NCBI RefSeq assembly: GCF_025024155.1
Contig: NW_026251780.1
Coordinates: 1-64,000, forward strand
Length of the DNA: 64,000 bases
Direction: 5' to 3'
Source: Gamsiella multidivaricata
Taxonomy: Eukaryota > Mortierellomycota > Mortierellomycetes > Mortierellales > Mortierellaceae
The notes beneath the pieces were generated by a model. It was given only the letters and a program-made list of their open reading frames with translations. It searched no databases and was not told the origin of the DNA. Every line of letters begins with the position of its first letter. Within the stretch, counting starts at the first letter, position 1. Positions 56,572 through 64,000 of the stretch are shown here, one piece after another. Made by a program: the position numbers and the translations under genes.

Positions 56572-56859
56572 ATGTTCGGATTCGAAAGCCACCACGATGA
56601 GGTCTACAACGAGACATCCAACAAGTCCTCCTGGTCCCACGAACTCATTGCAGGCGCCGCTGCCTTCGAAGCCATGAAGTCTGTTGAAAATGGCTCGACC
56701 GACAAGCACCAGTTGACCAAGGAGGCCTTTGCTGCCATTGCCGGCGCTGAAGCCGACAGGCTGATTGAGACCAAGGGCCTTGACTATATGGACAAAGAGA
56801 AAGCCAAGCGACAAGCCCGGGCGAACGCCGAGCGCATCTACGACGAGAAGTACGCTTAG
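56572..56859 (+). CDS. CipC-like protein (DUF3759 family)
   Basis: A 95-residue, single-exon protein. It matches the CipC family, first described as a concanamycin-induced protein in Aspergillus. Family hallmarks are SWSHELIAGAAAFEAMK near residue 24 and LIETKGLDYMDKEKAKRQA near 64, with Tyr/Asp-rich ends. It is small, soluble and helical, with no signal peptide. The molecular function is unknown; relatives are abundant under stress or during host interaction. The upstream TATA box and pyrimidine leader suggest strong regulated expression. It is the only multi-dozen-residue cytosolic gene here without an intron. A 28-A tract begins about 100 bp after its stop codon, which leaves open a retrocopy origin. 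Confidence 0.9.
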   Translation: MFGFESHHDEVYNETSNKSSWSHELIAGAAAFEAMKSVENGSTDKHQLTKEAFAAIAGAEADRLIETKGLDYMDKEKAKRQARANAERIYDEKYA

Positions 56860-58266: not shown

Positions 58267-60299
58267 TTAATAAATGCCCAAAGCTGCCATCTGGGCGTGT
58301 CCTCTATTGTCGCCCCTCTCGATAATAATGTGCCGTGGACTCTGCTGCAGCCAGTCTCGCGCCACGGGCCTACACGGGAACGTGGAGCAGTTATATAGAA
58401 TCCGTTCCAGAGCCGGGAATGCATGGTATAGGTATTTCACTTGATCGAGCCCCAGGACCCCCCATTTGCTGATGAGGTAGATACGGCGTATCATACCCTG
58501 TTTGGAGCCACAACACCCTGACAGATCCAAAAAGCCCAAGTTCAAGCGGTTCTTGCTCCTCCGACGTCCGATCACCCTCTACGCCGTGCGCAGTGCTATC
58601 TCCGTTTTCGTCCGCCTCACCAAAGGGAGTCTGCGGTTCAGGGTACCGCAGTGGTTTGAGTTTCATAAGCCACGAAACATGAATGCTGTTGATCCGAAGG
58701 AGCTGGAGTTGGTGCAGTCTTGGCACCAGATCCAAAAAGATGTGGTCGAACGACCACAGGTCACCGACAGGTCTAATCACATCTAGAGTCTGGATCTGAT
58801 TACATTCCCACCGGATCGCGTCCGGCAGAGTGTTGATAGTAGAGCCTGCAGGGGCGATGATGGAGTGTCGATCGCGGCGCGGTAGTACTTGAGGAAGCTG
58901 TACGAGTATCAATAGCTCACCGACATAAGCCGTCTCGAGTGACCAGCACTGTCCCAGGAACCTTGCCAGACCAAGTGCTGTGATGCGCACAGTCGGTAAC
59001 CATAAGGTGCTTGAGTCGGTATCGTTTGAACTCGTCCGAAATACTCTCTAGCATCTGATCGTCGACCTGACAATGGACCAGTCTGAGCGTTGTCAATCTC
59101 GACCATAGCGCGTCCTCGCTACTACTGCCCACGATCTTGCTGCTGTCGTTGAGAGATTCGCTGATCTGAAGCTGCGGATAGGACGAAAAGAATAAAGTAA
59201 AACATTTTTCAAAGGAGACCGCCTCCAATTCCGGACACAGTGTCGCCAGGAACTCGATGTTGGTCGGCGTTGAATTGACGGTCAGATGCGTGAGATTTGG
59301 GGCCCGTTTGAACAGTTTGTGGGTAAAGGTGTATCCTGTGTGGGCCCTTGGTGAAAATTTTGATTAGTTTTATGGTTGTGAGGTATTTGGCCTTGTAGTC
59401 TTCATCGAGTTCCGAAGTCTCTTGAAGGGGGTCGGAGGGCAGGAAAGCCTCGGATCGAGACGAGATATCAGACGGGCGAGGTTGTGTGATAGCGTTGACA
59501 TTTGCAACATCTGCGACCTGTGCATCAGACGCATTTGGAGTTGGCCTGCTTCTCCTCCACGGTATCCGAGACAAGAGATCCTGGAAAACTTTGAACGGAG
59601 GGGGGCTTTTGGGGCTGCTGAATGGAAGCTTGATTGCGTTGCTCCATTCTTCGGCCGTGTCCACCAATCGAATAGCATTCAGTTCCAGTAGCTGTAGGAG
59701 CGGACAGCCCTGGAGACACCTTAGAAGCGTTCTTGTCATGTAAGTTGACGCCTTCATCCGATCATTGACTCCGGTCAGACAGATAACCGTCAGTTTGTCA
59801 AGCCTGCCTCGAGCGATGGGTTCCAGAAGTCCGCATTGAATCGTGTCCAGACGAACTGGGTCCAATAGTTTGAAGGCCAGATTTTGAAGCCGACTGTTAC
59901 TGCGGACGAATGCGTACAGTGAGCTCGCGTCTTGAACTTGGCTGATCCAGAGTGTAACGGTCGTCAAATTGCAGCAATGAGCCGCAATGTCCCTGAGGCT
60001 CTGATCCTTGAGAAAAGGGGCATGCAGATGCTGGACGAAATGCCCGTTTTGACGTTTTGACGAAGTAAAGAGCCGTCCTTTGAGTGGAGGCGGAAGTAAT
60101 AAGAGGTTTTTCAAAGGAAAGATTTGAACTTCTCGGCCCAGACGGAGGAGACGAGGATGCATTTTTTAACATCATTGTAGGATAGGTGGGATTCGATATT
60201 ACAAATAATCTCGGGGAGGTCCAGGGGAGCTGGGCGCAGCTGGTAGAAGTACCGCGGTCTAGTACTTGGTGTGTTCTGAGTTTTGAAGGATGATTCCAT
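58267..60299 (-). pseudogene. Decayed F-box/leucine-rich-repeat protein
   Basis: An ATG at 60299 opens an F-box (LDLPEIICNIESHLSYNDVKK, then VSSVWAEKFKSFL). A TGA (60111-60113) follows where F-box proteins of this type have Trp. The rest continues in other frames: about 60100-59345 (CCNLTTVTLWISQ, GCPLLQLLELNAIRLVD); 59340-58985 (LFKRAPNLTHLTVN, LCPELEAVSFEKC); 58985-58540 (RITALGLARFLGQCWSLE); and 58540-58267 (LGFLDLSGCCGSKQG, HAFPALERILYNC). Together these cover a full-length substrate-adaptor-like protein of about 650 residues. At least four frameshifts and one nonsense codon make function unlikely unless the assembly is poor here. Its 3' end faces the GST gene. Confidence 0.8.
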
Positions 60300-60675
60300 G
60301 CTGATGAAGATGAAGATGAGGATAAAGATGAGGATGAGAATGAGGATGACAATGAAGTTGAGGAGCCCTAAGGTGGTGTGCGCTATTTCAGAGGGTGATG
60401 ATAGCGGGCGCATCGCCCATCCTGCCATCCTCAAGTAAACATGTTCAGTTACTGTGGCCAAAACCCCAATGGAAAGAAAGTCGATTGTTGGCGTTATCAC
60501 CAACCTTAAACATTTCAGTTGAACGCTCGAAGCACTGAAGATTTTATTCCACTGATGAGTTATTACTACATAATCCCATATGAATTCGTTAGCCTGTACG
60601 TTCGTATCCGCCAGGGAACGCCTGATTTACGAGTGAGATCGATGGCCTAGGTTGCCCTTCCGATGCTGGGGACAA
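60300..60675. other. Flank between the F-box pseudogene and the peptide gene
   Basis: Begins with an imperfect gatgaagat/gaggat repeat (60300-60352), which reads as an Ile/Leu/Phe run on the minus strand. The rest is the F-box gene's former promoter and the 3' UTR of the repeat-peptide gene. Nothing else is visible. Confidence 0.5.
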
Positions 60676-61050
60676 TTACATCCTGGGTTTGGCTCCAATA
60701 CCGTTGATAACCTGGACTGGATCCTCTTGCTCAAGGGCGCGACGCATCCTGGGTTTGGCTCCAATACCGTTGATAACCTGGACTGGATCCTCTTGCTCAA
60801 GGGCGCGACGCATCCTGGGTTTGGCTCCAATACCGTTGATGATCATGGTAGACTTCTCAATTTCATCTTTGGTCAGAGAGACAGTATCGTGGGTCCTCGA
60901 AATGCCGCCGATATCCGCGATGGCCGAGGCAAGGGCGGGAGTAGGGGTAGACTGGACGACGCCGGAACTGCACGAGAGGAGGACGGCGACAGAGACCACA
61001 ACGAGGGCCGACAGAGCGCGGAGGGCTGAGTGGATGGAGACTGAAGTCAT
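60676..61050 (-). CDS. Secreted repeat-peptide precursor (candidate Kex2-processed protein)
   Basis: A single-exon, 124-residue protein, ATG 61050, stop TAA 60676. Residues 1 to about 31 are a clear signal peptide (Arg-11, then ALSALVVVSVAVLLSC). A linker follows (about 32-70). The C-terminal half is a 22-residue unit repeated: VINGIGAKPRM, then Arg-Arg (81-82), then ALEQEDPVQ, VINGIGAKPRM, Arg-Arg (103-104), ALEQEDPVQ, VINGIGAKPRM, stop. Identical peptides bounded by dibasic sites after a signal peptide is the layout of Kex2-processed repeat proteins. Cleavage after each Arg-Arg would release two identical 20-mers and leave the longer N-terminal part. No homologue is recognised. DNA repeats are exact, so expansion is recent or homogenised. 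Transmembrane segments, cysteines in the repeats and GPI signals are absent. Confidence 0.75.
   Translation of the reverse strand: MTSVSIHSALRALSALVVVSVAVLLSCSSGVVQSTPTPALASAIADIGGISRTHDTVSLTKDEIEKSTMIINGIGAKPRMRRALEQEDPVQVINGIGAKPRMRRALEQEDPVQVINGIGAKPRM
60679..60840. repeat. 66-bp perfect tandem repeat (two full copies plus a partial)
   Basis: Copies at 60679-60744 and 60745-60810 are identical base for base; a third, 60811-60840, matches the first 30 bp of the unit. The period is 22 codons, so copy number can change without breaking the frame of the peptide precursor. Confidence 0.95.
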
Positions 61051-62008: not shown

Positions 62009-63956
62009 TTATAGTGTCTCACGTCCCTTCTTTTCTATGATCCGCGCGACCTTGAACACCATCTCCTCGTCGCCATACTGGCTCATCACCTGGAGCCCCA
62101 CAGGGAAGCCATCATCCCCATAAGTAGCAAACGGTACACTCATGGCCGGCAATCCTGCAAGACTCGCTGGAATAGTCAGGATATCGTCCATATACGCATT
62201 GATTGGGTCAATATGGTCTCCGACCACGTCCTCCAGTTTCGGCGCCGCTGTCACCGCGACCGGTGTCAGGAGTGCATGGACCCTTGAGGCGTCGCCTTCT
62301 CCGTCAAGTGAGCCTGTAATCATATTCGGGCGCGCAAAGATAGAATCAAAGTCCCTACGAATCATCTGCCGGATCTTTTGTGCACGCAAGAAGAAGTTGT
62401 CGAATGACCTGTATCCCATTGAGAAAGGCAAGATTTAGTACACATAGCATTCAATGGCGCTCGGAATCGACATTCAACCCGCAAGAGCGAGAATCGGCTT
62501 ACCCTGATGTGAGTACATAAGTCCCCAAAAGAATTCGCCGCCTGACCTCCTTGCCAAAGCCCTCACTTCGCGTATGAGAATATAGCGCATTTTTTTCATC
62601 CCGCTCTTCACTTTGATGACCTGAATACACAAAGAAATAAAATTTTTGTCAACTGCCTCTGTTCATCGACTCCTGTTCACCACACTGCCAAGACATTTCG
62701 TCCGCAAAAGAAACTCACCATATCGGATTCCATCATATCGCTGCAAATTACTTGACGCTTCTGCAGTCGCCAATGTGAAGTACGCTCCTACTGCCAGCTT
62801 TGTGTTCGGTAATGAAACAGGAACGACCGTGGCACCTTCATCCTTCAAAGTTTGGATACCTCGTCTCCACAATGCCTTCGTAGCAGGTGAGAGTTCTGTA
62901 ACGTTGAACTCTTGTGGGATGCCGACTCTGATACCTGACAGTGGTTTGGATCCCTGCTTTGTGTCTCTGATAGGCTTTTTTGCTTTTTCAATCGAGTCGC
63001 GTTGCCGCTGTGTCAAGCATGTTGAATCCTTTAAGTCCTCTTTAGAAATGATGTCTACGATTTGGCAATAAAAGGCATCGTGTTAATAACATGCATTGTT
63101 TGGCCCATCATTGCGCACCCAATGTACGCGTCAATGTCTTGCCGTACCATATATCGTCTTGGCGTCATCAACAGTCTTGGTAAGAGTGCCGACGGTATCC
63201 AGGGAGCTGGCATATGCAACAAGACCCCATCTGGATATCCGGCCGTATGAAGGCTTGAATCCAACAATGCCGCAGTACGATGCGGGCAATCTGACAGATC
63301 CTCCAGTATCTGATCCCAATGCCCTGTTCACAACGCGATAGCGATCAGGTTAATGTCCATCCTTGAATCTGGCATTTGGGCTTCCATAACCCAGCTTACT
63401 TACGCAAAACACATGTTGCTGGCTACAGCGGCAGCACTTCCTCCTGAACTTCCTCCAGGGGAGCGGCCCTCTACCTCGTCTAGGGTTTCGATCGCACGAC
63501 CCATGATGCCGTGCGGGTTCCTAGTTGGACCCGCATTACTGAAGACGTTGTGCGATCTATCCCGATCCCGATTTTTGATGAACGCTTTCAAAATTAGTTG
63601 TCTTCTGGTTGAGCAAAATTTCGTCGCAGTACATGATTCCCACTCGAATATCTGTGCCTTCATACCCCATTCCGAACTCGTCCATGTTGGCTTTCCCGCC
63701 AGTGATTGCACCCGCTTCCTGAAGCAGTTCAATAGCGGTAGCGGTATAGGGTGCTTGGAAATCTAGGCTCAAGGCGAAATTTTGTGTATTAGATCGACCT
63801 GGAGTTGCTGACTTGGCGATCCCGTCTTTGAGCGCAAACGATTCTGTAGATACGTACTTTCCAGCATAGCTGACGCACACGTCGTTCGCAACTCCTTTGT
63901 ACAAAGATTCATTTTGTATCCCATGATAGTCCCATCCAGAGCACTTTTGGCCTGAC
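62009..63956 (-). CDS. HER2: Glutamyl-tRNA(Gln) amidotransferase subunit A, mitochondrial (partial at the right edge)
   Basis: The amidase subunit that converts Glu-tRNA(Gln) to Gln-tRNA(Gln) in mitochondria (GatA; Her2 in yeast). Seven exons are visible: 63956-63858, 63762-63666, 63556-63404, 63323-63148, 63054-62719, 62620-62503 and 62408-62009. Phases agree. The first visible exon follows an acceptor and an intron that continues past 64000, so the start is outside the window. Amidase signature: Lys in [17 protein letters not shown], the Gly/Ser-rich [17 protein letters not shown] and [17 protein letters not shown] with the catalytic Ser. The C-terminus has [17 protein letters not shown] and [11 protein letters not shown], as in bacterial GatA. 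The residue after the catalytic Lys region (KMNLCTKEL) departs from the usual KDN. About 460 residues are present of roughly 480-500. Confidence 0.93.
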
Positions 63957-64000
63957 CTAGTGTACAAGAAGAGTTGGTTTGTGAGTCGTCTATAATCGCT

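What the first reader, a model, noticed from the sequence alone, without database searches (positions are those of the whole stretch)
60676..61050. Candidate Kex2-processed secreted peptide precursor with identical repeat peptides
A signal peptide, a spacer and 22-residue repeats separated by Arg-Arg occur in one 124-residue single-exon gene. Two released 20-mers would be identical, each ending in GIGAKPRM before the dibasic pair. This is the architecture of fungal mating pheromones and of the broader Kex2-processed repeat proteins described from fungal secretomes. Mortierella-type fungi are not known to use peptide pheromones. I recognise no homologue. This could be a new signalling or interaction peptide.
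Basis: partly seen in the sequence, partly recalled or inferred. Interest (0 to 1): 0.78.

Follow-up and report, generated by a model that had tools for sequence, protein, structure and literature searches.

The report
Small fungal Kex2-type peptide precursor gene
A fungus carries a small gene that looks built to release two identical short peptides outside the cell, a type of gene already known to be common in fungi, so it is a plausible new example and not a new kind of system.

Summary
Window 61050-60676 (-) is a 124-codon single-exon ORF with an N-terminal hydrophobic signal, a spacer, and three exact copies of INGIGAKPRM. The two internal copies are followed by Arg-Arg and the last by the stop codon. 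This gives two identical 20-mers, ALEQEDPVQVINGIGAKPRM. The host is almost certainly Gamsiella multidivaricata (Mortierellaceae): a protein named from it lies on a contig of the window's length.

A second database entry, apparently from another assembly, has one 66-bp unit fewer (102 aa), so the identical 20-mers look like a recent or unstable tandem expansion, not conservation. The named public model (423 aa) splices this ORF into the neighbouring F-box-like gene through a 780-nt intron, dropping the stop. I think that model is wrong, but without transcript data it is the main rival.

The genome has kexin-like and Kex1-family domain matches. Protein searches found no homologue in other species, though the database holds many Mortierellaceae. 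It works like a KEP (Kex2-processed repeat protein), a class reported in 38 of 39 Mucoromycota strains, but it falls below both published repeat-number thresholds. Nothing supports a mating pheromone: no STE13 signature and no STE2/STE3 match (a weak negative). Modest interest.

The parts
60676..61050 (-). Whole ORF, 124 aa plus TAA stop
   Evidence: no Pfam match at E<=1
60949..61050 (-). Predicted signal peptide, residues 1-34 (alternative cut after residue 30)
   Evidence: hydropathy and von Heijne-type score with a recalled matrix
60841..60948 (-). Spacer / pro-region, residues 35-70
   Evidence: sequence
60811..60840 (-). Core copy 1 INGIGAKPRM, residues 71-80, no dibasic site before it
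60805..60810 (-). Arg-Arg, residues 81-82, predicted Kex2 site (context KPRMRR|A)
   Evidence: sequence
60745..60804 (-). 20-mer peptide A, residues 83-102, Arg-Arg on both sides
60739..60744 (-). Arg-Arg, residues 103-104, predicted Kex2 site
   Evidence: sequence
60679..60738 (-). 20-mer peptide B, residues 105-124, identical to A, ends at the stop codon
61174..61179 (-). TATAAA 129 nt upstream of the ATG
   Evidence: 0.024 expected in 121 nt by window frequency; chosen after the fact
60543..60548 (-). AATAAA 128 nt downstream of the stop, possible poly(A) signal
   Evidence: 0.10 expected in 200 nt; chosen after the fact
59900..60679 (-). 780-nt intron implied by the public fused model P0122 (donor GTAATT overlapping the stop codon); judged doubtful

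Best explanation
It is a small secreted peptide precursor that works like a Kex2-processed repeat protein. Signal peptidase removes about residues 1-34. A kexin cuts after Arg82 and Arg104. A Kex1-type carboxypeptidase trims the Arg-Arg. This releases two copies of the linear 20-mer ALEQEDPVQVINGIGAKPRM and a pro-region with the same C-terminus. All products then end in INGIGAKPRM, the only part shared by every copy, so that decapeptide is the likeliest active end. The most probable role is a lineage-restricted secreted signalling or interaction peptide. The ORF, its repeats and the presence of the enzyme families are shown; secretion, cleavage and role are inferred.
For: Architecture exact at the stated place. 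The stop codon falls exactly where the next Arg-Arg would be, so all copies share one C-terminus. Pattern seen in 1 of 626 sampled ORFs (this one) and in none of five simulations. TATAAA and AATAAA at sensible distances. P-domain matches at two neighbouring places on one contig, each with a subtilase match beside it, and serine carboxypeptidase family matches on three contigs. A second database entry, P0001 (102 aa, one 29,014-base contig), is the same protein with one repeat fewer and ends at the position of the stop. Frame score of the ORF, 0.09, is the highest of its six frames and above the 95th percentile (0.025) of 205 wrong-frame chunks. Comparable proteins are frequent in Mucoromycota, and across fungi most types are found in a single genus (PMC7329392 passages).
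Against: The public model (P0122) splices the ORF into the next gene and removes the stop. The coding score is modest: just below the 25th percentile (0.095) of 41 chunks of the genes used for training (not held out), with the repeat counted twice. One antisense frame (0.033) also passes the wrong-frame 95th percentile, and for the non-repeat codons 1-80 an antisense frame scores as well (0.069 against 0.062). No homologue outside these entries, so no purifying selection can be shown. The 66-bp identity includes silent sites and is explained by recent duplication. Only two dibasic sites. No transcript, secretion or peptide data.
Confidence: 0.66

Rival explanations
1. The ORF is the 5' exon of the neighbouring F-box/LRR-like gene, as in the public model BC939DRAFT_506425 (423 aa). 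The repeats would then be an odd N-terminus of a larger protein, and no peptide with a C-terminal stop exists.
For: P0122 contains residues 1-123 of the ORF joined to residues encoded from about 59899 downward; the donor GTAATT and acceptor CGCAG are usable splice sites by sequence. Whether the model rests on transcript reads is unknown to me.
Against: The implied intron is 780 nt, swallows the stop and the AATAAA, and skips a reading frame that starts MESSF at 60299 with weak F-box matches (E 0.022 and 0.066, both below Pfam's cut-offs). The neighbour therefore seems to have its own start. The other entry, P0001, ends at the position of the stop.
Confidence: 0.14
2. A secreted or cell-surface protein with a small tandem repeat that is not cut, or whose cutting does not matter (structural or wall-associated).
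For: Only two dibasic sites and a Thr/Pro-containing spacer; repeat number differs between two database entries.
Against: Dibasic sites coincide exactly with repeat boundaries and the stop with the last one; kexin-type domain matches are present in the genome.
Confidence: 0.1
3. A chance or dying ORF: a 66-bp tandem slippage product inside non-functional sequence, with the dibasic spacing a by-product of duplication.
For: No homologue elsewhere; perfect DNA identity of units; weak coding score over codons 1-80; other frames of the repeat are open too.
Against: Signal-like N-terminus, TATAAA and AATAAA; listed as a protein or as an exon in two database entries.
Confidence: 0.08
4. A mating pheromone precursor equivalent to the ascomycete alpha-factor.
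For: Same general layout; MF(ALPHA)2 also has only two repeats (PMC6339444 passage). A STE3 orthologue is reported in Rhizophagus, another early-diverging fungus (PMC3834313 passage).
Against: No XA/XP dipeptide after Arg-Arg; no STE2 or STE3 match in the genome (no positive control for those families, though a multi-pass membrane family was found); trisporic acid is assumed for Mortierella relatives (PMC3834313).
Confidence: 0.02

Closest known systems
KEPs, Kex2-processed repeat proteins (Le Marquer 2019, PMC6339444; Umemura 2020, PMC7329392)
   Same: Signal-like N-terminus, short pro-region, near-identical repeats separated by Arg-Arg, kexin-type domains in the genome, no relative found outside the species.
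   Different: Only two dibasic sites, so fewer repeats than both surveys require; the fused public gene model could hide it from protein-based surveys.
Ascomycete alpha-type pheromone precursors (MF(ALPHA)1, MF(ALPHA)2)
   Same: Secreted precursor with dibasic-separated copies; a last copy in the C-terminal fragment (PMC6339444, for MF(ALPHA)1; that it ends at the stop is recalled).
   Different: No STE13 dipeptides, no sequence likeness established, no STE2/STE3 match found in this genome.
Ustiloxin-type (dikaritin) RiPP precursors
   Same: Signal peptide plus Kex2-separated repeats.
   Different: No Tyr in the 20-mer, and no UstYa (PF11807) match in the genome (no positive control). None of 357 Mucoromycota KEPs was accompanied by a DUF3328 gene (PMC7329392 Table 1).

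Membership tests
KEP | N-terminal ER signal peptide | tested here: inconclusive
   Strong by hydropathy and a von Heijne-type score with a recalled matrix; SignalP not available
KEP | Repeats separated by KR/RR/KK | tested here: met
   RR at 81-82 and 103-104 exactly at repeat boundaries
KEP | At least four fragments after in-silico cutting and at least three repeats (Le Marquer 2019) | tested here: not met
   Two RR sites give three fragments; rule read in PMC6339444 section 24
KEP | At least three tandem repeats of >=8 aa between Kex2 sites (Umemura 2020) | tested here: not met
   One unit lies between two RR sites; counting the terminal copy there are two full and one partial; rule read in a passage
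KEP | Kexin encoded in the genome | tested here: met
   P_proprotein and Peptidase_S8 matches at two neighbouring places on C113; whole genes were not modelled
KEP | Peptide actually released by Kex2 | not testable with these tools
   Needs peptidomics or a kexin mutant
Alpha-type pheromone precursor | STE13 signature (XA/XP after the dibasic site) | tested here: not met
   RR is followed by AL EQ ED; definition from passages
Alpha-type pheromone precursor | Cognate STE2-type receptor | tested here: inconclusive
   No PF02116 match at E<=0.1; nothing matched in the control genomes either, so absence is not shown
Alpha-type pheromone precursor | Role in mating | not testable with these tools
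   No expression or genetic data
Ustiloxin-type RiPP | UstYa/DUF3328 genes | tested here: inconclusive
   No PF11807 match in the whole genome at E<=0.1, no positive control

The most novel reading that the evidence does not exclude
A previously unknown, possibly Gamsiella-specific peptide hormone or mate/partner signal in Mortierellomycota, with a C-terminal INGIGAKPRM active end and its own unknown receptor, whose dose changes by repeat-number variation between strains.
Probability: 0.08. Interest if true: 0.65.

Novelty: new member of a known kind. Interest (0 to 1): 0.3.

Why it matters
If real, it adds a concrete, testable secreted peptide in a phylum where I found little in print about peptide signalling (one paper each), and shows how an automatic gene model can hide such a small precursor by splicing it into a neighbour. 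KEPs are already reported as common in Mucoromycota and as poorly conserved across fungi, so it does not change the general picture.

Tried and rejected
Paralogues: protein search of the own genome gave only itself and one 22%-identity match at E 0.0885 on C123, not followed beyond reading the first 60 bases of its locus. A degenerate-codon pattern for GIGAKPRM with up to 2 mismatches gave only the three known places, on the ORF's strand; the reversed-pattern control gave two matches. Viral contigs: 10 pattern stretches, none confirmed as a relative. Pfam: no family at E<=1. Papers: no paper in the held library holds BC939DRAFT, GIGAKPRM or INGIGAKPRM. The two searches pairing Mortierell with pheromone and either Kex2 or secreted peptide returned one paper each, seen as listings only. 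The search for Gamsiella multidivaricata with genome gave two listings, not read. Of 8 listings for Mortierell, trisporic acid and mating I saw passages of one. Of 14 KEP listings I saw passages of two, and of one of these the abstract and one methods section. Antimicrobial-type peptide: not favoured, the 20-mer has net charge -1. Cyclic RiPP: not favoured (no Tyr or Cys in the 20-mer). Structure prediction was not run, because a 20-mer without relatives would give an uninformative model.

Full report
What is there. The minus-strand ORF 61050-60676 encodes 124 residues. Residues 1-34 look like a signal peptide (recalled matrix, no SignalP). A spacer follows, then INGIGAKPRM-RR-ALEQEDPVQVINGIGAKPRM-RR-ALEQEDPVQVINGIGAKPRM-stop. 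The first copy has no dibasic site before it and shares with the others only the 30-nt core: 30/30 nt there, 13/36 nt in the stretch before. The two complete 66-bp units are identical at every base.

Is it more than chance? In 264 kb of this genome (the window plus 20 stretches of 10 kb), 626 ORFs of at least 70 codons with an ATG were tested. One had two or more near-identical 8-mers directly before a dibasic site or the end, and it was this one; 54 of 626 had a signal-like N-terminus by a crude rule. Five simulated sequences gave 0 each. The rule was shaped on the case, so this shows rarity and not a formal probability. Frame scoring favours the ORF's frame overall (0.09 against at most 0.033 in its five other frames). 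The 95th percentile of 205 wrong-frame chunks is 0.025, which that one other frame also passes. The score is modest next to 41 chunks of the training genes themselves (25th percentile 0.095), the repeat counts twice in it, and over codons 1-80 one antisense frame is as good, 0.069 against 0.062. A TATAAA at -129 and an AATAAA at +128 fit a stand-alone transcription unit; these were picked after the fact.

Whose genome. A probe made of twelve copies of the repeat found one protein, P0122, on a contig of 181,922 bases, the length of the window's own contig. It is named BC939DRAFT_506425 of Gamsiella multidivaricata, which is Mortierellaceae. In that public model residues 1-123 of the ORF are spliced to exons of the neighbouring F-box/LRR-like gene. 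The implied intron is 780 nt, 60679-59900; its donor GTAATT overlaps the stop codon. I doubt this model. It skips a frame starting MESSF at 60299 that has weak F-box matches (E 0.022 and 0.066, below cut-off), it removes the stop and the AATAAA, and another database entry ends at the position of the stop. It remains the main rival, because I have no transcript data and do not know what the model rests on.

A second allele or assembly. P0001 (102 aa, one contig of 29,014 bases) is the same protein with exactly one 66-bp unit's worth of residues fewer, otherwise identical. Its source is not shown: its letters equal the first 102 residues of the window's ORF, and the tool hides sources for what the window encodes. 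I infer a second assembly of the same or a very near strain, because the neighbour CipC-like protein (P0002) is likewise held on two contigs. Recombination or slippage between the 30-nt cores of a two-copy gene would produce exactly the three-copy gene seen here. A collapsed repeat in a short-read assembly, or a contig end at the array, would also explain the shorter entry. Either way the identity of the two 20-mers is a mark of recent duplication, not of conservation.

Relatives. The whole-protein search scored 187 candidates and found one match at E<=1, P0001. The repeat probe scored 7,998 candidates (capped) and found one, P0122. Both searches need shared exact 5-residue words and candidates of limited length. 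As a control for species coverage, the small neighbour at 56572-56859 (95 aa) matched 250 of 251 candidates. The 120 listed include many Mortierellaceae (Entomortierella, Linnemannia, Podila, Dissophora, Mortierella and others; family recalled), the nearest apart from itself at 78% identity. So the database covers the family, and the precursor has no recognisable annotated relative there. The control protein is a conserved one, so it tests coverage and not sensitivity for a fast-changing peptide; small unannotated genes would also be missed.

How it would work. Kexin-type proteases appear to be encoded: P-domain matches at two neighbouring places on C113, with subtilase matches beside each; whole genes were not modelled. 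Peptidase S10 matches, the family of Kex1, lie on three contigs. DPP-IV-type matches, the family of STE13, lie on two contigs; which families Kex1 and STE13 belong to is recalled. The context KPRMRR|AL fits a kexin/furin site (recalled consensus). After trimming, every product would end in INGIGAKPRM. The following AL-EQ-ED is not an STE13 signature (definition in PMC6339444 passages). No STE2, STE3 or UstYa family match was found. Those three families matched nothing in the control genomes, so absence is not proven; a multi-pass membrane family (HlyIII) gave 7 matches, so such proteins are visible to the search.

Against what is known. Umemura's survey reports KEPs in 38 of 39 Mucoromycota strains, 9.15 per strain on average, none of the 357 accompanied by a DUF3328 gene; across fungi most types were found in a single genus (PMC7329392, passages). 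Its Mucoromycota were mainly Glomeromycotina and Mucoromycotina, and neither survey's main text contains 'Mortierell' (for PMC6339444 'Mortierella'), so I cannot say that a Mortierellaceae genome was among them. Le Marquer et al. require at least four fragments and three repeats (PMC6339444 section 24 read); Umemura requires three repeats of eight residues (passage). This protein meets neither count, so by those rules it would not be listed as a KEP, although it works like one and a two-repeat alpha-factor gene (MF(ALPHA)2) is known. Le Marquer et al. state that the role of such proteins in early-diverging fungi is open. A passage on Mortierella relatives points to trisporic acid as pheromone; the same paper reports a STE3 orthologue in Rhizophagus (PMC3834313, passages).

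Verdict. Real feature, correctly seen; a probable small Kex2-type secreted peptide precursor, species- or genus-restricted as far as annotated proteins show. It is a new member of a known kind in working and layout, below the published counting rules. The bolder reading, a new peptide signal of Mortierellomycota, is open but unsupported.

Noticed in passing
58391-60299 (-), frames read by eye: Neighbouring F-box/LRR-like gene whose N-terminus (MESSF frame) is missing from the public model P0122, which instead carries the repeat ORF as its first exon.
   Followed up: partly
L011 470-6999 (-) (G000:C113:185500-192500): Two kexin-like stretches (subtilase plus P-domain matches) lie next to each other in this genome.
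   Followed up: partly
62009-64000 (-): Frames read by eye as a glutamyl-tRNA amidotransferase subunit A (GatA)-like gene upstream of the repeat gene; no family search was run on it.
   Followed up: no
56572-56859 (+): Single-exon CipC-like (PF12585) protein of 95 aa with many Mortierellaceae relatives; used as the database control.
   Followed up: yes
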